DNA of 38,819 nucleotides, taken from the IMG/VR virus record IMGVR_UViG_3300037475_000102, positions 1 through 38,819 of that record, one strand, 5' to 3'. Origin of the DNA: a virus. Under the pieces are notes generated by a model, which searched no databases, was not told the DNA's origin, and saw only the letters and a list, made by a program, of their open reading frames with translations. Positions 6,705 through 38,076 of this stretch are shown piece after piece. A program made the position numbers and the translations under genes. Every line of letters begins with the position of its first letter. The stretch's first letter is position 1.

Positions 6705-9302
6705 TTAATTATTCCACTGTGCTATTTCACTTTGTGAAAGTACACGGTTGTAGACGGCTATAAAATATATCCGGCATTTAACCCAATTAGATAAAAATTT
6801 AAATGTACCAAAGTATGTACTTGTGTTGGTTGCGGTCCATGCACCGAAACTATTATCTTTTCTTAAGACACCATTCCTATAGATGTCACCGTCACTTGTA
6901 ACTGCGGTGGCAGAATCATCCTGCTGACTGCCCCAATTGGCATAATATTCAGATGAATTATTTGAAAGGTTCAAAGTATTACCCGTTGACGTATAAACGT
7001 AAGTCCTTTCAGCGTTTGAACCTGCTGTATTTGCTATGATGTAACCATTGGCATAACCCCTGAATTTTATTATCATAGTCCATCCCGCCGGAAGATATAA
7101 TAAGGTATTGGTTTTTATCCCGTCATTCGAGCCGTCAAGATAAAGAAAACCGAACGCCGTTGAATCTGTCGGATCATCTGAAGAACTCGAAGCTGTTGCT
7201 CCTAACATTAGAGTATCACCTGTATTTGTGCCGTCCGTGTAAAGCGAGGGCATACGCTGTTGATAGGTTGAAATGCCATTATAAAAACCTCTCCATTTAT
7301 CAAATCCTACATATATCTTTAATGAATCTATTGGAACAGTATAGGTTCTATTCTTTATTAAAATCCTCTGTGTATTTGTTACAGTCATTGTACCCGTTAA
7401 ATAGCTATATCCATAAGCAGTAGTTGTGAAAACTAAAGTATCGTTATTGGCTATTGTTGAAGTATCGGGATTATACGAGTAATGCCAATAATCATTTGTA
7501 GCTCCCACTGAATCCATTGTGTAAGAAGCAACCGTAGGCGTGTTTGAGTTAATGCCTATGCTGATTTTCAGACTGTCGGTTGCAAAAAAATTATATGTAT
7601 TTGCCTGAATGTTTACAGGCAGTCTGTCTTTAATTGTATCGGAATAAGTTGTAACATTTAACCTTTGATATGTCGAATCTGTATAACCTATCCAGTATGG
7701 TTTTATAGCCTGGTTAAATATCTGTCTTGCAATTAGCCCGTTAGCATTTCTTATCGGGTGAAGTGTATCACCAAATTGAGCGTAGCAAAACTGCGGTTTT
7801 AAATCCCATAAATTTCCTGCATCTCCACCTGCCCTGAATTGTCCGAGCAATGACATTGTATTTATCCACTGTACACTATGAGCCGTACAGTATGTATGAA
7901 CCGCTGAATTAACGGAATCAACTGTTTGCATTGTGGCGTTTGTTTCAGACTGCGAAGGAGATATGCCATAAACAATAGGTACAATTGAATGATTAAGACA
8001 AGAATCTATCATAGCTTTTGTTCTTGCTATTATACCGGCTGAATAATGGTTGGCTAAGTTCCAGTCATTGATCCCGCCTTCGATAACGCAAATCTTTGGG
8101 CTTAAATCTATGCAATCAGTTTTAAACCTGCTTTGTATCATTGTTGATGTCTGAGAGGCTACACCCATATTCTGATAAGTCCAATTCATATATGTACCTA
8201 TCTTATAAGGTAAAGTAGTAGTAACATCATAACCGGAATAATTTGTATGTGAAGCACCCGAACTAAAACGGTATGAAGTGGTTGCGTTCATTGTGCCGTC
8301 TATAATGGAATTACCAATACATACCATTACAGGTGCAATCGCAAAGTAAAATCTTATAGGAAAGTATCTTTCGGTTACTGTTCCGGTAGTCCAGTCTTTA
8401 TTCAAAGAATCACTGGCGAAACTTGAATAAGACCTGTTAAAAGCTGTACTGCTTGACATTGGTTCAGCTATTGCATTACCTGTCCCCGTTATGACAATGG
8501 CATAATAGTCCCCTGCTTGTACATCAATAGGAGTAGTTAAAACAATCGAATTGACTCCGTTAACCAGCCTCGATGTTAACTCTTCACTGGTTCTTATTAA
8601 AGTGAATATCCCACCAACTTTTGTATTTACATTCCTCCAAATTTGAAATTTGAAAGAAGTTTGTTTGGTAGCATCTCTAATCTCTAAACCTATTTGAGTT
8701 ATACTTCCTGTCTGCCTTATTCTGTACCAAGAATGATTCATTAAAAGCCACTGGGTGCCATTAATTGTATTAGCTGTATCGCTTGCAGTAGTGATCGGCT
8801 GATATTCACCTATCCATGTTACCCCCGTATTTGGTGAAAGAACAGGCAATGAACCTGTTGTATTGTATAATATGTTGAGTCTTACCGTTCCCGAGCTCAA
8901 TCCGAAAAAACTTGTACGGTTAATAACCTGTGAATAATAGGAACCGCTTAGAGATATGGTCCAGGCTGAAGTATCGATGCTTGAGCTGCCGTCAATTATT
9001 ACATTGGCTTTTACTGTCCCGGAATCCTTACCATAGAATGTGACCTTATTTATTGCCTGGTTATATTTGCCGTCAGTTTGGTTGCGTACCATTTGGAATT
9101 TACTGGTATCAAGCTGAGAGATTTCTATGTAGAAGTTTATTTTGACTGTGCCGGCTGTCAGTCCGTAATATGTTGTACGGTTAGTGAGTGAGGTGTACTT
9201 ACCGTCTGTGTTATTAGCGGTTAATTGCCAGTTTGTTGTGTCGATGGTTTGCCCGAAACAGTGAGCCGTGAAAAGGAAAAAGATTAAAAGTATTTTTTTC
9301 AT
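6705..9302 (-). CDS. Tail fibre/spike: signal peptide, SGNH esterase, LamG
   Basis: This 865-aa protein from the ATG at 9302 begins with a Sec-type signal (MKKILLIFFLFTAHCFG) that is rare for a virion protein. The alternative ATG at 9326, overlapping the previous stop, would place eight residues before it. Three tandem repeats of about 43 residues (roughly 18-145) share W/F-x2-x-x-x-T-D-G-x-Y and YG-x2-x-GTV. An SGNH/GDSL hydrolase follows, with IGNS near 331, GGIND near 410 and D-T-L-HP near 515. Residues about 660-865 look like a LamG/concanavalin domain ending YNRVLSQSEI. It probably deacetylates or binds a surface polysaccharide. Confidence 0.8.
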   Translation of the reverse strand: MKKILLIFFLFTAHCFGQTIDTTNWQLTANNTDGKYTSLTNRTTYYGLTAGTVKINFYIEISQLDTSKFQMVRNQTDGKYNQAINKVTFYGKDSGTVKANVIIDGSSSIDTSAWTISLSGSYYSQVINRTSFFGLSSGTVRLNILYNTTGSLPVLSPNTGVTWIGEYQPITTASDTANTINGTQWLLMNHSWYRIRQTGSITQIGLEIRDATKQTSFKFQIWRNVNTKVGGIFTLIRTSEELTSRLVNGVNSIVLTTPIDVQAGDYYAIVITGTGNAIAEPMSSSTAFNRSYSSFASDSLNKDWTTGTVTERYFPIRFYFAIAPVMVCIGNSIIDGTMNATTSYRFSSGASHTNYSGYDVTTTLPYKIGTYMNWTYQNMGVASQTSTMIQSRFKTDCIDLSPKICVIEGGINDWNLANHYSAGIIARTKAMIDSCLNHSIVPIVYGISPSQSETNATMQTVDSVNSAVHTYCTAHSVQWINTMSLLGQFRAGGDAGNLWDLKPQFCYAQFGDTLHPIRNANGLIARQIFNQAIKPYWIGYTDSTYQRLNVTTYSDTIKDRLPVNIQANTYNFFATDSLKISIGINSNTPTVASYTMDSVGATNDYWHYSYNPDTSTIANNDTLVFTTTAYGYSYLTGTMTVTNTQRILIKNRTYTVPIDSLKIYVGFDKWRGFYNGISTYQQRMPSLYTDGTNTGDTLMLGATASSSSDDPTDSTAFGFLYLDGSNDGIKTNTLLYLPAGWTMIIKFRGYANGYIIANTAGSNAERTYVYTSTGNTLNLSNNSSEYYANWGSQQDDSATAVTSDGDIYRNGVLRKDNSFGAWTATNTSTYFGTFKFLSNWVKCRIYFIAVYNRVLSQSEIAQWNN

Positions 9303-9319
9303 AATATTGTTTTTGAATT

Positions 9320-9709
9320 TTACCATAAATTATTCCAAACAGAACCGTCATAACATTCAAGTTTACCGCTTGTCGTGTTGAATATCGTATATCCCGCTGC
9401 GGGCGAAGCCGGACGGTTCAAGGTTGACATGCTGGGGAACTGGAAAAAAGTACCATTCCCGCCTGACATAACTGCTGAACCTTTAAGCCTTGTTGCACCG
9501 TCAACATATAGTTTTTCACTTACTCCGGTTGAAGCATTGACCCAAACGTTACCGAAGGAAGATATTGCGCCATCCGCTCCGCTGCCTATTGCAAAATCTC
9601 CCGAAGCCTGGTCTATTGTCAGTCTAAGTGTTCCGTCATATTTAATTTCAAAGAGTGTACCTGTGTCGATTAATTCTACTTTCCCAAATGTAATTGCTTT
9701 GTCTGCCAT
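9320..9709 (-). CDS. Tail fibre-like protein
   Basis: This 129-aa protein is Gly/Ser-rich and beta-rich. Its end (PASPAAGYTIFNTTSG then YDGSVW) is a motif common at the tips of phage fibre and appendage proteins. The stop overlaps the possible early start of the esterase fibre. It probably trimerises at the tail tip. Confidence 0.65.
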   Translation of the reverse strand: MADKAITFGKVELIDTGTLFEIKYDGTLRLTIDQASGDFAIGSGADGAISSFGNVWVNASTGVSEKLYVDGATRLKGSAVMSGGNGTFFQFPSMSTLNRPASPAAGYTIFNTTSGKLECYDGSVWNNLW

Positions 9710-10815: not shown

Positions 10816-11361
10816 TTAAATTACTACAAAACTGTCGTGAGCTGAAATAACCGCAACACCGGGATCGATTACGCGGCGTATGTTGATACTTGGTACCATA
10901 TCAACTGCCATAAATGAAACCTTTAAACCGTGTGCGCCCGCAGGCTTTGTACCTATGCCCCTGATGATGCTTAAGATATTTGATGTTAAGATCACCGGAA
11001 CATCAACATAAGTTGTTTCATCTATTGCGGGCGTTAAAAATAAATCATAAGTATTTTGTGAATTATAGGCCATTGCAAAGTTCTCATATACATCAACACC
11101 CATCAAAAGCCCGGCAAAATCAAAAACCCAATCAGGAACGAACCCAAAAACCGTTTTAATATTTTTTAATGTAGGCGATTCAATATTAAAATTACTTGTT
11201 CTCTGAATGACTGAAATTTCATTCCAATTTTCCGTTTTGGGGGATGAAATGAAGCTGTATGGAAAATCAAAACTCCATGACACACCGGGACTATCCCCTG
11301 TTTTGCGAACACCCCTTAAACGTCCTACTCCTATTCCATTTGGGTATAAAAAATTAGCCAT
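10816..11361 (-). CDS. Distal tail/virion protein of unknown fold
   Basis: This 181-aa protein is mostly beta with no membrane segment. I recognise no family. It is the last gene read leftward before the inverted lipoprotein cassette, and the first after it, so the cassette was probably inserted between two tail genes. It starts at the ATG MANFLYPNG. Confidence 0.55.
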   Translation of the reverse strand: MANFLYPNGIGVGRLRGVRKTGDSPGVSWSFDFPYSFISSPKTENWNEISVIQRTSNFNIESPTLKNIKTVFGFVPDWVFDFAGLLMGVDVYENFAMAYNSQNTYDLFLTPAIDETTYVDVPVILTSNILSIIRGIGTKPAGAHGLKVSFMAVDMVPSINIRRVIDPGVAVISAHDSFVVI

Positions 11362-11407: not shown

Positions 11408-11439
11408 TTGTGTTTTACTGCCAGTTTTATATATATTTG
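11408..11439 (+). promoter_or_regulatory. Rightward promoter of the lipoprotein cassette
   Basis: TTG (11408-11410), 21 nt and TATATTTG (11432-11439) match the Bacteroidetes promoter pattern. TATATT is followed by exactly 5 nt and then arm1 of leader P2 at 11443. This is the only rightward promoter seen inside the late region. Confidence 0.75.
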
Positions 11440-11442
11440 AGT

Positions 11443-11545
11443 GTTGATGAACCTATTTAATAAAACTTTTTGTGTGCTTGCTTCGGGTAGTGTAACCTTA
11501 GATTCATTTCTTATGGTTCATCAACGGCTATTCAGGCAAGTACAC
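11443..11545 (+). ncRNA. Pseudoknot-type leader P2
   Basis: The order is arm1 GTTGATGAACC (11443-11453), arm2 GTGTGCTTGC (11472-11481), arm1' GGTTCATCAAC (11515-11525) and arm2' GCAAGTACAC (11536-11545). arm1 is 11 perfect pairs and arm2 is 10 pairs with one G-U. The stems interlock. The linker ATTTAATAAAACTTTTTG (11455-11472) matches the P1 linker at 16 of 18 positions. The ATG of the lipoprotein is 19 nt after arm2'. Confidence 0.65.
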
Positions 11546-11564
11546 TCATTTAATTTTATAAATT

Positions 11565-12014
11565 ATGAAAAATTTAGTATTAATAATTTTTGCAGTTTTA
11601 ATATGTTCCTGCGGTAAAGATGATATTACCGGACCAACCGGAACAGGTTCTACTGACAGCTTGATATATAGCAAGGATTCCGTTACCGCCGTTTCTGAAC
11701 TTGGAATGACATTGCCTACTATCGTAAATATTGACTCTTTGCATACCAATAAATACAAAATTGTTTTCGATGCTTCTACAAATGATACTACTACACGCCC
11801 CGTTGTAGAAATTCTTTATTATTTTTTTCAGGATTCCGTTCATGCACTTTACGAAGAAGAATTTACTGGCGAACAGATTAATCAACATTACGACAAGACT
11901 ATTCTTATAAATGAAATTCACGATTTTAAACTTGAAATAGATGCTGGCTTTACTGCTATTTATTCCGGCTCCTGGATTACTATAAAGCATCTTAAAATCT
12001 ATATTGTTCATTAA
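11565..12014 (+). CDS. Surface lipoprotein cargo gene (possible superinfection exclusion)
   Basis: This 149-aa protein begins with a lipoprotein signal, a hydrophobic run ending in a lipobox ICSC with Cys16. Next come G-K-D-D and a Gly/Thr-rich linker. K-(D/E)2 just after the lipidated Cys is the known lipoprotein export signal for surface display in Bacteroidetes. The rest is beta-rich and unrecognised. It is the only rightward gene in the late region, has its own promoter and structured leader, and converges with the tail gene at 12011. A membrane-surface moron expressed by the prophage, for example to block receptor use by other phages, is a reasonable inference. Confidence 0.75.
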   Translation: MKNLVLIIFAVLICSCGKDDITGPTGTGSTDSLIYSKDSVTAVSELGMTLPTIVNIDSLHTNKYKIVFDASTNDTTTRPVVEILYYFFQDSVHALYEEEFTGEQINQHYDKTILINEIHDFKLEIDAGFTAIYSGSWITIKHLKIYIVH

Positions 12015-13492
12015 ATTTCTACAAGCTCCACAGAAGCTCTTTGACCGCTTTGCGGATCGAAAGTTAAGTTAATGCCCGTGATCCTTCTTACCCAATAATC
12101 AACTTCATTAACCGTTACGATATCGAATACTTCCAGCTCAATATTGGTATCGAAATGAATATCTGTATTGATAATGTTCTTATTACCGGCAATTAGAAAA
12201 TCATATTCAACGCCTGCTGTTTTATAAATTAATGTATTTTCAAAATCAGTCGAGAACCAACCAATATCATCAATTTCAAAACTTTCACTAACGCTATAAT
12301 TTTGTACAAATAACCGTGCAAAAGCTACAGTATTAAAACCTAAATGATGTTTAAAGAAATAAGCGTTACCAGCTTTATTTATAAAGTAATATATTCTATG
12401 AACCTGCTTAACGCTTGAAACAGGTGTATAGTCAAGAGGGAATAAATCATCATCTAAATTCCTGATTAAACCTTTACATTGTATTGTTACACCCGCCGAA
12501 AGAAAGTCCTCTGAATCTACATTATAAAAGTTACTTCTTGTAGTTGGTCCAACCGTTATTTTTTCTGCATCATTTATATATAAATCATCTTTGCTTTTCA
12601 TTAATCCGGCATATCTGCTGTCAACTCTCACTTGGTCTGGTTGTGTGTCATGCCTGTAAAACAGCATTAAAAACTTCGCTGAATTAATTTGATTTGTTTC
12701 TGTGTGAGGCTCAAGCATTTGTATTTCTCTGTGGTTTATGCCTTCGCTTCTCCACCCGCACCACAAAACAACTTTAATAAAATGCGTATTAAGAGGCACT
12801 AAGCCTTCTGTTTTCAGCTTAAATATAAAACCCAATCCATAAGCAAGCTCTTTGAACAACTGCCAACCATTTTCAGAAATTCCATTTGCAAGCATTTCAT
12901 TGTATGCTTCCCAAATAATTTTAGGCGTATATCCCAAGCGTGAACTCCAATTAAAATTTAGATCCGTTGAAAGTCTTGGAGTGTCGTTTATGCCATTATT
13001 AACACCTCTAAAAAGATAACTTGTTATAAAGTTGTCAATATCTACGCCGCCAGTTAAACGAGGCGGGGCTATACAGAAATTAGCAAGTTCACCTTCCCAT
13101 GTAAAGAAATTCAATGTGATATCCCACCTGCCGGACATAAAAGACTTGTCGACCGTGGTTTCTTCGTTATCCATTACTCCGCCTATGATTTTATTGCCAA
13201 GATCGAGGCTTAGTGCATACTTATAACGCGTATTATCCGAAGGCTTGAAAAATTCCTTTACTGTTAAATTATTTTCATTACTTCTTATTGAATCAGATAA
13301 GGAAAAACCGATTGCAAAGGCACTGCAAACACAGTTAAATTCACTTTCAGCACTGCTTAATTGCTCGGTGTAACTGGAGAAAGTACCGTCTAATATATCT
13401 TCAAAGAATAATGAATCGTTATAATCTTCATTGATAAAAGAAAAATAATTATCTCTTTGCTCTGTTGAGTATCTTTTTACGTATCCTATCAT
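12011..13492 (-). CDS. Tail tip/baseplate protein downstream of tape measure
   Basis: This 493-aa protein directly follows the tape measure gene (ATGA overlap), the usual place for distal tail (Dit) or tail-associated (Tal) proteins. It is mixed alpha/beta with many aromatic residues and no obvious enzymatic motif. The last residues (VNEVDYWVRRITGINLTF) look like a beta-rich closing domain. The name rests mainly on position and size. Confidence 0.6.
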   Translation of the reverse strand: MIGYVKRYSTEQRDNYFSFINEDYNDSLFFEDILDGTFSSYTEQLSSAESEFNCVCSAFAIGFSLSDSIRSNENNLTVKEFFKPSDNTRYKYALSLDLGNKIIGGVMDNEETTVDKSFMSGRWDITLNFFTWEGELANFCIAPPRLTGGVDIDNFITSYLFRGVNNGINDTPRLSTDLNFNWSSRLGYTPKIIWEAYNEMLANGISENGWQLFKELAYGLGFIFKLKTEGLVPLNTHFIKVVLWCGWRSEGINHREIQMLEPHTETNQINSAKFLMLFYRHDTQPDQVRVDSRYAGLMKSKDDLYINDAEKITVGPTTRSNFYNVDSEDFLSAGVTIQCKGLIRNLDDDLFPLDYTPVSSVKQVHRIYYFINKAGNAYFFKHHLGFNTVAFARLFVQNYSVSESFEIDDIGWFSTDFENTLIYKTAGVEYDFLIAGNKNIINTDIHFDTNIELEVFDIVTVNEVDYWVRRITGINLTFDPQSGQRASVELVEI

Positions 13493-15669
13493 GCCCGCAC
13501 CTTGCCATCATAAATTTCGCCGTCTATTTTAACTCTCCAGGAGGCTTCTTTGCCAATTTCAGAATGAACCATGACCTGAATATTGGGTTTATACATTCCA
13601 CTTCTTGAAGGCGTTGGTGTGTAGTTGTTATGAGCCATGCCATGAGCCCCTGCCGCCCCAGCCAAGGCACTTACAGCCCCGCCTCCCGGAAACAGTCCGA
13701 TTATATCTCCGAATAATCCTCCTATGCTTGAACCGGCATTGATAATAGAATCAATCATATTGACTATATCCCCGAACGTACCTACAATTTTACCAAGCTC
13801 TGTATCCATGCCTATACCAAATGCATCTAGTGTAGCTTTTAATGAGCTGTCAAATAATTTAGCATCACCGAGTAACTTCTTCCCAATATCTTCGTGCATA
13901 CCACCCGCTACACTAGACAGGTTATTAAACGGACTTTTTAAGAAGGCACTGCCGGAGTTTGCATTGTTTGCGTTGAATACTTCACCGGGACGGACCATAA
14001 AAGCGTTACCCATTAAGCGGGCATCTTTACCAAATGAGGATAACGATTCTATTTCTCTTACAAGGTCTCTTTCTTCCTGTAGGTATTTATTGCGGTGTTT
14101 TTTTATTTCAAGGTCATTCTTACCGATATATGAGAGGTTTTCGCTTGCTCTTAATTCATCGAGTAAAACCTGAACATTTTTCCTGGTTAATGTTTCTGTA
14201 AGCTCAAGGTTTAAATGTTCTTCTTTTAATTTTTCAAGAAGAAGATCAAGTAAATCTATTTCTTCTTTTTTGCTGCCTGACTTTTTATCTTTTGTATTAT
14301 CGCTTTTACTTCTTAAAGGTGTGCCGTCTGCATTGCGGGCTATCTTTGTAGTTAGTCCGTGACCTGCATCTCCTTCAACAAGTAGTCCTCCATGACCCTT
14401 TTTTATTTCATCTTCCAAGCCAAGAATATTCATTAGCTGAGATTCGTAATCTTCGGCATCCAAAATAAGATTTACAAAGAAACCACCTGCGGGAGATTGC
14501 TTAGCCCAATCCGATATGTCATGAAAACCTTTATCGAGACTTTTAAGAGTATCATATAAGCCTTGGAGATTGCTTTTTAAGGCACTTGAACCTAAATCTT
14601 TTAATCCATCAGTTACAAGTTTAACGGGGTTAAAAAGTCCAGTTACTAATATCTTACCTGTTTCACTTGCATTAATTCCAAGATTGCCTAACGCACCAAC
14701 AGCAACGGTAACACCCGTAGAAGCAGCTTCTCCAACACCTTCCCAGAATTCGCCCATTTGCTGTTTAGCGATCTTCATCTTGGTTCCTGTAGAGTTTTCA
14801 AGAGAATCACCAAGATTTTTATATTTCTTCGCAATAATATCTACAGCATCACCATTTCTTAACTGTTCAGGTGTAAGATGTTTAAGCTCTTCTTCCAGCT
14901 TACCCATTTTACCAACATTGCCTTCCATTGTTGCGTCAAGTTTATCAACAGCGGTTCTTAAATCTGTACCCTGGACGACAGCAAGTAAACGACCTGCATT
15001 GATCGTTTTATTGATCTGCTCTTCTGACCTGCCCTGAGCTAAAAGAAAAGCCTGAACGCTTTCAATCTCTTCGTCTGCAATGCCCCATTTACCCTGCATT
15101 TGCTCTGCAGCGTTCTTTAAATTCAAATATTCAGTGGTACTATCACCAGTCGCCGCTTTTAGCTGCAGTAAGGCATCTTCTTGTTTTGAGTAAGCATCTA
15201 ATCCCTTTTCAAGTGCAGCAACGACACCAACACCCGCAAAACCTACGCCCATTAAAGAAGTAGTAAATTTTTCAGCATCAAAACTTGCTTTTTTTATTGA
15301 GGGACTCAGCGCATCAAACTCACTCTTTAGCTTCATTGCATTGGCTTCTTTTGAGCCGAGTATAACACTCTTACCCATTAACCCGCCTGTAAGTCCTGTA
15401 CCGGAGGGGAGGAAGGTATTCTGCTTAACGGAGGCTTGCATTTCACGCTGTGCAGTTTTAAAATCAGTGAGTTCTTTTTGAAGTGCTGCTTTGTTTTCCT
15501 GCACACGTATCTTCTGCTCAGCGGTGATTGAAGCGGTTACTTGCTTACTGTTCTCTACGGATATTTTAGCGGCTGCCTGCTCTTGTGCGGTTAAACGCTT
15601 TTCAGCCTGCTCCGCTTTCTGGAAGAAATCAAGATTACCCTTAAATACGTATTCGTGAACGTTACTCAA
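13489..15669 (-). CDS. Tail tape measure protein
   Basis: This 726-aa protein is the longest of the tail-tube region. Its N-terminal coiled coil (about 15-70) is followed by alternating hydrophobic and helical segments, including Gly/Ala-rich stretches near 135-160, 310-330 and 635-690. It sets tail length and helps DNA pass into the cell. It begins at a TTG that overlaps the preceding stop (TTGA). It stands two genes after the frameshifted chaperones, the canonical order. Confidence 0.85.
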   Translation of the reverse strand: MSNVHEYVFKGNLDFFQKAEQAEKRLTAQEQAAAKISVENSKQVTASITAEQKIRVQENKAALQKELTDFKTAQREMQASVKQNTFLPSGTGLTGGLMGKSVILGSKEANAMKLKSEFDALSPSIKKASFDAEKFTTSLMGVGFAGVGVVAALEKGLDAYSKQEDALLQLKAATGDSTTEYLNLKNAAEQMQGKWGIADEEIESVQAFLLAQGRSEEQINKTINAGRLLAVVQGTDLRTAVDKLDATMEGNVGKMGKLEEELKHLTPEQLRNGDAVDIIAKKYKNLGDSLENSTGTKMKIAKQQMGEFWEGVGEAASTGVTVAVGALGNLGINASETGKILVTGLFNPVKLVTDGLKDLGSSALKSNLQGLYDTLKSLDKGFHDISDWAKQSPAGGFFVNLILDAEDYESQLMNILGLEDEIKKGHGGLLVEGDAGHGLTTKIARNADGTPLRSKSDNTKDKKSGSKKEEIDLLDLLLEKLKEEHLNLELTETLTRKNVQVLLDELRASENLSYIGKNDLEIKKHRNKYLQEERDLVREIESLSSFGKDARLMGNAFMVRPGEVFNANNANSGSAFLKSPFNNLSSVAGGMHEDIGKKLLGDAKLFDSSLKATLDAFGIGMDTELGKIVGTFGDIVNMIDSIINAGSSIGGLFGDIIGLFPGGGAVSALAGAAGAHGMAHNNYTPTPSRSGMYKPNIQVMVHSEIGKEASWRVKIDGEIYDGKVRA

Positions 15670-16960: not shown

Positions 16961-17524
16961 TTATGTATTAGTTTCGACAATTACGCACCAGTCACCGAGT
17001 GCTATGGTTACGGTAGCGGTTAAAGCAGTAGTATTCCCTACCCAAGAGGATAATTCACCGGGTGTTAATGATACTGCGTTTACCCTGAGAATTTCACCCT
17101 GGAAGTTTAAAGGAATTTCACCGCCGGGAAGTTTAAATTCAACATCGGGATCGAACTGCCCAAAGGCGAACATTCTCTGAACCTTACCCCTGACGTTTCT
17201 GCCAAGCTCGTGCATACAGATATGATAACTGTCTCTTACGCCGTTTCTTATGGAATCAATTACATCTTTATCCCTCTGCATTAAGGTACACATTATGCCT
17301 GTTTCCCTGTTACCCTGTTCAGTAGCAACCTTTTCATTTGCCTCATTGTAAAGGGCGGTAAGCGGGGTTTTATCTTTGAAAGATGAATCTTTTACTTCGC
17401 CCCAATCATGAACCGTATCGGGTGAAGATAAAGCTGCGCCTGTTGCATCACGTCCGGAGGCTTTATGAGTAGATCCCCCTCTGCTGTTTATTGCGCTTCT
17501 GTCATAACTAGCTGTTATACTCAT
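16961..17524 (-). CDS. Major tail tube protein
   Basis: This 187-aa protein directly precedes the chaperone pair, as major tail proteins do. It is beta-rich in its second half (FKLPGGEIPLNFQGEILRV), consistent with the tail-tube fold, with a Ser/Gly-rich flexible N-terminus. Identification relies on size, context and predicted beta content rather than on a motif. Confidence 0.7.
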   Translation of the reverse strand: MSITASYDRSAINSRGGSTHKASGRDATGAALSSPDTVHDWGEVKDSSFKDKTPLTALYNEANEKVATEQGNRETGIMCTLMQRDKDVIDSIRNGVRDSYHICMHELGRNVRGKVQRMFAFGQFDPDVEFKLPGGEIPLNFQGEILRVNAVSLTPGELSSWVGNTTALTATVTIALGDWCVIVETNT

Positions 17525-18494
17525 ATTGATTGATGTTTAAGTTTTTTAATTCTGTTAATTTTTCTTCTGATAAAAGAATATCATTTTGCAAGTCGGATAA
17601 ATACTGATTGCGTGTTGAAAGAATATCTAACTCTAATTCAGCTTCTTTGTGCTTACCTTTTAACTTGTAATATTCAAATAGCTTTAAATGTCCTAAGTTT
17701 TGATTTGGTGCGTATTCAAAAGACTTAGTATAATTTTTTACCGCTTCAAACTCATACATCTTGGCTATATCCATATACAAACCGCCTACCTGCAAATAAA
17801 CAAATGCCTTTAATCCAGGTTCAAGTTGACGGATACAGTTATTTAAAAGTTGTAATGCTTCGGCATGACCACCTGAACGTAAATAATGAATCCCTTTGTA
17901 ATAATCGTTTTGAAGTCCGGGTGCAAGATTACCGATTATATCATTCATTTTATTTTCGTGGTCGTTTTCTGAAAGCTCTTTACCGAAATGAATAATACTT
18001 ACATCACTTTTACCCTTATTTCTGCCCGTTATATCCGGTGTTTCGTGTCTTGCTCCGGTATATTTAATACCCAAATGATTTTTAAATAATCTGAATTGTC
18101 TGCACATTTGCCCATTAACTCCACGCTGTACCAATTCCCAGACTTCTGCTAATTCATTTGACATTAAGGTTTTTAATCCTTCATGCTCGTAGAAGGCTTC
18201 ATCACCGTCTAAGATTAGAATCCAATCACCTGTGCATTTACTAACAGCAAAGTTACGGGCTGCGGAAAAGTCATTTATCCATTCAAAATCAAACTCTAAT
18301 ACTTTCAACGGAGTGTTATCCATCCAAAATTCTTTAATAATACCTTTCGTTTCATCAGTCGAGCCTGTATCAACAATCACTATTTCAATTTGCATATTAT
18401 CTAAAGTATGAGGCAAAATATTAACAATAGATTCCAATGACTTGCGAATAGTCCTGCCTTCATTCTTTAAAATATAACATACAGATAAGCTCAT
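17508..18494 (-). CDS. GT2 glycosyltransferase with TPR-like C-terminus
   Basis: This 328-aa protein has an N-terminal GT-A domain of family 2. Signs are VDTGSTDE at 41-48, DFSAARNFAV at 75-84 and the LDGDE motif at 95-99, where the D-x-D binds metal and nucleotide sugar. Residues about 205-310 are helical repeats of TPR type. It is embedded in the tail operon, with ATGA overlap from the tail-terminator gene and a 17-nt overlap into the major tail gene. This suggests a virion protein as acceptor, although a host surface target is possible. Similar enzymes also occur in host polysaccharide loci. Confidence 0.85.
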   Translation of the reverse strand: MSLSVCYILKNEGRTIRKSLESIVNILPHTLDNMQIEIVIVDTGSTDETKGIIKEFWMDNTPLKVLEFDFEWINDFSAARNFAVSKCTGDWILILDGDEAFYEHEGLKTLMSNELAEVWELVQRGVNGQMCRQFRLFKNHLGIKYTGARHETPDITGRNKGKSDVSIIHFGKELSENDHENKMNDIIGNLAPGLQNDYYKGIHYLRSGGHAEALQLLNNCIRQLEPGLKAFVYLQVGGLYMDIAKMYEFEAVKNYTKSFEYAPNQNLGHLKLFEYYKLKGKHKEAELELDILSTRNQYLSDLQNDILLSEEKLTELKNLNINQYEYNS

Positions 18495-37626: not shown

Positions 37627-38076
37627 TTGGGTAGAGAAGCAGAAGATTTAAAAGAATACCTCAAGCTGGGAGGTATCACTGAAAGGGTTATTAGGCTGGC
37701 AATCGCCAACGAAATAAGCTCGATATACAGGCTTGCACAATTAGCTAAGGTCGGGGAAGGCGGTTTGCGATATTCTGTAAAAAAGAATACATGGCAAAAA
37801 CCAGAGACCCTGCAAAAAATAGCTGAATATTTTAATATCGGTATTGATTGGCTCATTACAGGAAAAGACAGTTTGGTATTTCATACAGAACGCCTCAACA
37901 AACTCGAAGAAGTGAACAGGAAAAATATAATAACCATAACAGAATTATTTGATGAGAATACACGATTAAGAAAAGCATTGATAGAGCTTACTAAGCTGCC
38001 GGATATGAAAGAGAAGTTTGATAAGATACCAGAAAAAGAAAAACCCAATATGACCCTGCTGGATAATAAGAACTAA
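37627..38076 (+). CDS. XRE-type repressor with C-terminal coiled coil
   Basis: This 149-aa protein starts at TTG 37627. Residues about 30-78 form a C1/Xre helix-turn-helix (IYRLAQLAKVGEGGLRY, then FNIGIDWLITG). A leucine-rich coiled coil (90-125) replaces the peptidase domain of LexA-type repressors, so induction probably does not use RecA self-cleavage. It is divergent from the early operon, with inverted repeats between. It is the likely lysogeny repressor. Confidence 0.8.
   Translation: MGREAEDLKEYLKLGGITERVIRLAIANEISSIYRLAQLAKVGEGGLRYSVKKNTWQKPETLQKIAEYFNIGIDWLITGKDSLVFHTERLNKLEEVNRKNIITITELFDENTRLRKALIELTKLPDMKEKFDKIPEKEKPNMTLLDNKN

What the first reader, a model, noticed from the sequence alone, without database searches (positions are those of the whole stretch)
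11408..12014. Inverted lipoprotein cassette inside the tail operon
A complete rightward unit (promoter, P2 leader, lipoprotein gene) sits between two leftward tail genes and converges with one of them by 4 nt. The lipobox Cys is followed by G-K-D-D, matching the K-(D/E)2 surface export signal known from Bacteroidetes lipoproteins. Inference: a moron that displays a protein on the lysogen surface, perhaps for superinfection exclusion.
Basis: partly seen in the sequence, partly recalled or inferred. Interest (0 to 1): 0.75.

Follow-up and report, generated by a model that had tools for sequence, protein, structure and literature searches.

The report
Prophage lipoprotein gene tied to tail-tip
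A temperate phage carries, backwards inside its tail genes, a self-contained gene for an outer-membrane lipoprotein of a previously unnamed family that turns up in several unrelated prophages with the same tail-tip genes and also in the host chromosome, so it probably marks or shields the surface of infected cells, most plausibly against related phages.

Summary
At 11565-12014(+) there is a real gene (codon usage; relatives under purifying selection) for a 149-aa lipoprotein (LICS^CGKDD), behind a Bacteroidota-type promoter (TTG-N21-TATATTTG) and converging by 4 nt with a leftward tail gene. Libraries held no match, but whole-genome searches showed a new lipoprotein family in one class of the host phylum. 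Of 13 resolvable loci with the flanking tail pair, 8 (window included) hold the lipoprotein gene inverted at this spot; four Mu-like prophages join the tail genes directly and carry it behind the CI-like repressor instead; one lacks it. A monophyletic host chromosomal copy also exists. Own promoter, orientation, presence/absence at one junction and relocation beside the repressor fit a lysogen-expressed moron. Linkage to one tail-tip module makes superinfection exclusion (Llp- or Ltp-like) the best mechanism, but it is untested. The surface-export motif fits the window protein exactly, yet is not conserved in phage relatives. The 'P2 leader' match is chance level. In passing: the same lipoprotein/tail pair sits in a conserved ~15-kb capsid-tail cluster at one chromosomal site in several species, a candidate gene transfer agent.

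The parts
11408..11439 (+). Bacteroidota-type promoter: TTG 11408-11410, 21-nt spacer, TATATTTG 11432-11439
   Evidence: Exact match to TTG-N19-21-TAnnTTTG. -7 element present in 6 of 6 stand-alone cassettes, full form in 5 of 6 counting this one. Prediction only.
11445..11564 (+). about 120-nt structured leader, special to this phage
   Evidence: RNA fold z -2.75, 2 of 200 shuffles as good; no Rfam match; five relatives have the -7 element only 28-33 nt before the ATG.
11443..11453 (+). 5' arm of stem A, GTTGATGAACC, pairs with 11515-11525
   Evidence: 11-nt perfect inverted arms; 3 of 1000 shuffles reach it. Crosses stem B 11472-11481/11536-11545, so pseudoknot or alternative fold.
11515..11525 (+). 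3' arm of stem A, GGTTCATCAAC
11472..11545 (+). hairpin B, outer arms 11472-11481 / 11536-11545
   Evidence: minimum-free-energy fold
11565..12014 (+). lipoprotein gene, 149 aa
   Evidence: family relatives; mature-domain homology; omega of relatives
11565..11609 (+). lipoprotein signal peptide, residues 1-15 MKNLVLIIFAVLICS
   Evidence: lysine n-region, hydrophobic core, lipobox I-C-S-C; same form in all 27 family members. No signal-peptide predictor was available.
11610..11624 (+). lipidated Cys16 followed by G-K-D-D
   Evidence: fits C-X-K-(D/E)2-X of Capnocytophaga (PMC5080379); not conserved in phage relatives
12011..12014 (.). 4-nt convergent overlap of the two gene ends
   Evidence: relatives overlap by 4-20 nt or abut
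12011..13492 (-). tail gene following the tape-measure gene (493 aa, 'tail493')
   Evidence: homologues in prophages at E 1e-5 to 1e-202; tape measure 13489-15669 by PHROG
10816..11361 (-). next tail gene (181 aa, 'g181')
   Evidence: homologues at the same place in relatives, abutting tail493 where the cassette is absent

Best explanation
A moron: an independently transcribed, inverted cassette that makes an outer-membrane lipoprotein in the lysogen. Shown: the gene is real, belongs to a new lipoprotein family, has its own host-type promoter sequence, occupies or leaves empty the same junction in related tail operons, and in other prophages lies behind the repressor. Inferred: it is expressed from the silent prophage by the host's primary sigma factor, is carried to the outer membrane, and there blocks or masks the receptor or entry site used by the tail tip that its own phage encodes, so that lysogens are not superinfected and progeny do not stick to their debris. 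Also inferred: leftward late transcription of the tail operon runs antisense through the whole cassette and would turn it down on induction.
For: Same inverted position in window, L092, L110, L111, L169, L115, L118, L119. Empty junction in L093, L113, L116, L117 and L175. In four Mu-like prophages (L158, L159, L165, L166) the family member follows, on the same strand, a repressor-like gene (HTH plus S24 peptidase in two, S24 alone in one, HTH alone in one; in L165 one small gene lies between), and DDE transposases are present. L158 was found through the lipoprotein alone and then proved to have the tail493-g181 pair (E 8.5e-25 and 3.6e-15). TAnnTTTG upstream in 6 of 6 stand-alone cassettes. 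Homology survives removal of signal and linker: chromosomal profile finds phage copies to E 1.6e-11, tail profile finds chromosomal copies to 3.4e-10. Precedents: T5 llp lies next to the receptor-binding protein gene pb5 and blocks its receptor (PMC9586334); Rtp45 (PMC12685063); Ltp lies in the lysogeny module near the repressor and is transcribed in the prophage (PMC3952083).
Against: No expression, localisation or phenotype data. The window protein is a distant member (21-28% identity; leave-one-out mature-domain E 0.0014), and L166 is weaker still. No transcription terminator was found after the gene. The tail module may simply be common in phages of this host, so co-occurrence could be less telling than it looks. 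In the gene-transfer-agent-like cluster, exclusion is a less obvious need. A conserved chromosomal homologue leaves a general host-surface role open.
Confidence: 0.5

Rival explanations
1. Lysogenic conversion without exclusion: the lipoprotein is a phage-borne relative of a resident host surface lipoprotein and changes a host trait (binding, nutrition, biofilm, masking), carried because lysogens benefit.
For: A homologue sits at a conserved chromosomal locus in 11 genomes and forms one clade, 98/98, outside the phage copies. A retained copy lies in a decayed prophage remnant beside a gyrA-like gene (L115) and in the fixed gene-transfer-agent-like cluster.
Against: 12 of 13 loci with one tail-tip pair carry a copy, in two different positions, which a general host benefit does not predict.
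Confidence: 0.27
2. Part of the lytic programme: a lysis lipoprotein (outer spanin) or a tail-assembly factor.
For: It lies in the late region, and outer spanins are lipoproteins (general knowledge).
Against: Inverted, with its own promoter, not next to the endolysin; about 130 mature residues with no C-terminal membrane segment; chromosomal homologues and repressor-linked copies. A secreted lipoprotein cannot join cytoplasmic virion assembly.
Confidence: 0.07
3. Receptor display: the lipoprotein is itself a docking site for the tail, promoting spread among kin or uptake of gene-transfer-agent particles, rather than blocking it.
For: Tied to the tail tip and kept in the gene-transfer-agent-like cluster, where exclusion is not needed.
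Against: A prophage that makes its host more receptive to the same phage is unusual; absent in one such cluster (L113) without loss of the rest.
Confidence: 0.1
4. The leftward 137-aa ORF 11598-12011 is the true gene and the lipoprotein frame is its shadow.
For: TAATG overlap with the preceding tail gene, same strand as the operon.
Against: Codon score 0.01 against 0.28; no consistent long leftward ORF at the site in relatives, while the lipoprotein frame is conserved with omega 0.13-0.15.
Confidence: 0.01

Closest known systems
T5 Llp, T1-family Cor, Rtp45 (superinfection-exclusion lipoproteins of siphophages)
   Same: Phage-coded outer-membrane lipoprotein; for T5 the gene lies beside the receptor-binding protein gene (PMC9586334, PMC12685063)
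   Different: Those are small (about 6 kDa for Rtp45) and periplasmic, from lytic phages; no sequence match of our family to any solved chain. Here temperate phages, about 150 aa, with a chromosomal homologue.
Ltp of Streptococcus thermophilus phage TP-J34
   Same: Lipoprotein gene in the lysogeny module near the CI-like repressor, expressed from the prophage (PMC3952083), as in the four Mu-like prophages here
   Different: Gram-positive; no sequence match; in the window the gene is in the tail operon instead.
Morons of lambdoid phages
   Same: Independent promoter, inserted between genes that are adjacent in relatives, orientation foreign to the surrounding operon
   Different: No terminator seen; Bacteroidota-type promoter; a host chromosomal homologue exists.
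Surface lipoproteins of Bacteroidota with a lipoprotein export signal
   Same: CGKDD fits C-X-K-(D/E)2-X; chromosomal copies fit the S-D-D-D type (PMC5080379)
   Different: Motif not conserved among the phage copies; the signal of this host class is unknown.

Membership tests
Moron | own promoter | tested here: met
   TAnnTTTG in 6 of 6 stand-alone cassettes, chance 0.12-0.21 each; full promoter in 5. Consensus match, not activity.
Moron | inserted between genes that are adjacent in relatives | tested here: met
   tail493 and g181 abut in L093, L113, L116, L117, L175
Moron | own terminator | tested here: inconclusive
   simple scan finds none on the + strand at the gene end; convergent gene, and terminators of this host class are not known
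Moron | expressed in the lysogen | not testable with these tools
   no transcript data
Bacterial lipoprotein | signal peptide with lipobox and Cys | tested here: met
   ICS^C at residues 13-16; same form in all 27 members; by reading, not by a predictor
Bacteroidota surface lipoprotein (export signal) | C-X-K-(D/E)2-X or polar plus acidic run after Cys | tested here: inconclusive
   met in the window protein, not in most phage relatives
Llp/Cor/Rtp45 superinfection-exclusion lipoproteins | sequence kinship | tested here: not met
   no convincing match in PDB sequences with the family profile, nor in Pfam, NCBIfam, PHROGs or PADLOC
Llp/Cor/Rtp45 superinfection-exclusion lipoproteins | blocks adsorption of the cognate phage | not testable with these tools
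   needs an adsorption test
Ltp family | sequence kinship | tested here: not met
   no match
Outer spanin | paired with an inner spanin next to the endolysin | tested here: not met
   inverted among tail genes, no partner gene beside it in the window

The most novel reading that the evidence does not exclude
A phage family of surface lipoproteins, kin to a resident host lipoprotein, is a dedicated partner of one tail-tip module and travels with it between temperate siphophages, Mu-like phages and a chromosomally fixed gene-transfer-agent-like cluster, moving between a 'behind the repressor' and an 'inverted in the tail operon' site; it controls who may be entered by particles with that tip.
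Probability: 0.3. Interest if true: 0.8.

Novelty: new variant of a known kind. Interest (0 to 1): 0.6.

Why it matters
Superinfection-exclusion lipoproteins are known from a few enterobacterial and streptococcal phages. This is a candidate counterpart in the Bacteroidota phylum, with a defined protein family, two recurrent lysogeny-compatible gene positions, a linked tail module and a host homologue, which together make receptor and exclusion tests straightforward to design. The same pair inside a fixed capsid-tail cluster would also open the question of how gene-transfer-agent-like particles choose recipients.

Tried and rejected
Antisense ORF 11598-12011 as the real gene: rejected by codon usage. 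Close relatives in viral contigs by the lipoprotein, the 493-aa tail protein, the capsid protein, the lipoprotein-family profile or the tail profile: none. Terminase relatives (80 viral contigs) share almost nothing else with this phage, and 41 of those records held no tail493. Flagellimonas and Allomuricauda hits of the lipoprotein are only signal-peptide likeness (CSCGKDD) on unrelated chromosomal proteins. The leader's inverted repeat was sought in viral contigs: none. No Rfam family. L171 is not a convincing family member.

Full report
Setting. The window is a complete phage genome by its 127-nt end repeats, with a tyrosine integrase (60-1091), repressor-like gene (37627-38076), large terminase, portal, protease, HK97-type capsid and tape-measure genes. 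Its terminase is closest to phages of Bacteroides, Parabacteroides and Flavobacterium (34-36%).

The observation. A 149-aa ORF runs rightward at 11565-12014 between two leftward tail ORFs, with 4 nt of overlap at the convergent end. It scores as coding (0.277, phage genes 0.18-0.64), while the antisense 137-aa ORF, which starts in a TAATG overlap and might have been the operon's own gene, does not (0.01). TTG-N21-TATATTTG lies 126-157 nt before the ATG. The protein starts with a typical lipoprotein signal and CGKDD.

Relatives. Direct searches for the lipoprotein in phage records, viral contigs, Pfam, PHROGs, NCBIfam and PADLOC gave nothing useful. Searching 396 genomes of the Bacteroidota phylum with the neighbouring 493-aa tail protein gave two good loci, both in one class; 391 genomes of that class gave several more. 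The class is not named by the tool; secreted proteins with NYPNPFNP-type C-termini in the flanks suggest Ignavibacteria (inference only).

The cassette is recurrent. At the 3' end of the tail493 homologue, a convergent lipoprotein ORF of 146-165 aa stands in L092, L110, L111, L115, L118, L119 and L169. All begin with a lipoprotein signal and share residues C-G-x-D ... S-x-D-S ... F ... T-N. In L093, L113, L116 and L117 tail493 and the next gene join directly. Thus the junction is a presence/absence site.

The family is wider. A profile of seven members searched against the class found more full-length members. Their surroundings fall into three main kinds: the inverted tail-operon site; behind a CI-like repressor, same strand, in four prophages with DDE transposases of the Mu kind; and a conserved chromosomal locus, beside a radical-SAM-like gene and a 158-aa gene, in 11 genomes. 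Three of the loci that lack the cassette in the tail operon (L093, L116, L117) lie on the same contigs as, and appear to be parts of, these Mu-like prophages, which carry it behind the repressor. The fourth Mu-like prophage, L158, was found through the lipoprotein alone; its tail region, fetched afterwards, holds the tail493-g181 pair with nothing between (L175). Count: 13 resolvable loci with the pair, 8 inverted, 4 behind the repressor, 1 without (L113). Two further loci (L114, L120) end at contig edges.

Is the homology real? With signal and linker removed, a profile of chromosomal members finds tail and repressor members to E 1.6e-11, and a tail profile finds chromosomal members to 3.4e-10; the best shuffle scored about 1 in that test and 0.43 in the next. 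The window protein, left out of training, scores E 0.0014, the only hit in its window, and its best pairwise score beats all 200 shuffles; L165 scores 1e-5, L166 is marginal, L171 is not supported. The tree puts the chromosomal copies in one clade (98/98) apart from phage copies, so the phage genes are not recent captures of the present host gene. Deeper branching is unresolved.

Regulation. All six stand-alone cassettes have TAnnTTTG upstream (each 0.12-0.21 by shuffles), with full TTG-N20/21-TAnnTTTG in five including the window. In five of them it is 28-33 nt from the ATG. Only the window has a 120-nt leader, which is more structured than chance with two crossing stems; no relative allows a covariation test.

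Selection. Among three cluster copies, omega of the lipoprotein gene is 0.13-0.15, close to that of tail493 where measurable (0.12) and of the chromosomal lipoprotein (0.09-0.14) (synonymous sites are near saturation, so values are rough). The gene is maintained as protein.

Mechanism. Shown: lipoprotein family, own promoter sequence, presence/absence at a junction, relocation behind the repressor, linkage to one tail pair. Inferred: lysogen expression, outer-membrane location, exclusion of phages with the cognate tip, and antisense turn-off by late transcription. Precedents are T5 Llp beside pb5 (PMC9586334), Rtp45 (PMC12685063) and Ltp near the repressor (PMC3952083); none is related by sequence as far as tested. 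Surface exposure is possible: the window's CGKDD equals the optimal Capnocytophaga signal C-X-K-(D/E)2-X (PMC5080379), but phage relatives do not keep it.

In passing: a candidate gene transfer agent. L092, L110/L172, L111/L173/L174, L112, L113/L121, L114 and L188 hold the same ~15-kb cluster (small and large terminase, portal, capsid, short tape-measure-like gene, tail493, lipoprotein in most, endolysin). Where flanks were read, the chromosomal neighbours are the same (both sides in G314, G455 and G349; one side in G529, G503, G496). No integrase, transposase or replication gene was seen. The capsid gene is single copy in 10 of 15 genomes of the family, at 89-94% identity to the query, with omega 0.02-0.05. 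This is what a domesticated particle looks like; no paper in the library pairs 'gene transfer agent' with 'Ignavibacteria'.

Noticed in passing
L092 3354-17905; also L110/L172, L111/L173/L174, L112, L113/L121, L114, L188: Conserved ~15-kb capsid-tail-lysis cluster at one chromosomal site in several species, capsid gene single copy in 10 of 15 genomes of the family (89-94% identical, omega 0.02-0.05), no integrase or transposase seen: candidate gene transfer agent or other domesticated phage particle.
   Followed up: partly
L092 5278-6621(-), also in L110, L111, L113, L093, L116, L118: A 430-450-aa gene inside the tail operons starts with a Sec signal peptide (MKKLLLILTIIMLVQIPLSAQ...), which is odd for a tail protein; it recurs in Mu-like prophages and in the cluster.
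   Followed up: no
window 11443-11545: Two crossing stems in the lipoprotein leader (pseudoknot or switch), stronger than chance, not found in relatives or Rfam.
   Followed up: partly
window 17508-18494(-): GtrB-like glycosyltransferase (PHROG 13126, E 6.6e-13) among the head-tail genes: a second possible surface-conversion gene.
   Followed up: no
window 6705-9326(-): 873-aa tail-region protein with a GDSL lipase/acylhydrolase domain (PF13472, 1.1e-10), possibly a capsule or O-antigen deacetylase.
   Followed up: no
L157, about 500-980 nt after the start of the chromosomal copy: Tandem second lipoprotein (MKLKIHLTILSSWILLVCSCGDENIVQPDIPVGTVLFSADSI...) beside the chromosomal copy.
   Followed up: no
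L188 4561-5028(+): Cluster copy of the lipoprotein gene with one in-frame TAG: decaying copy or sequence error.
   Followed up: no
L115 9489-12832: Apparent decayed prophage remnant near a gyrA-like gene that keeps a tail493 homologue, the inverted lipoprotein and an integrase-like gene.
   Followed up: no
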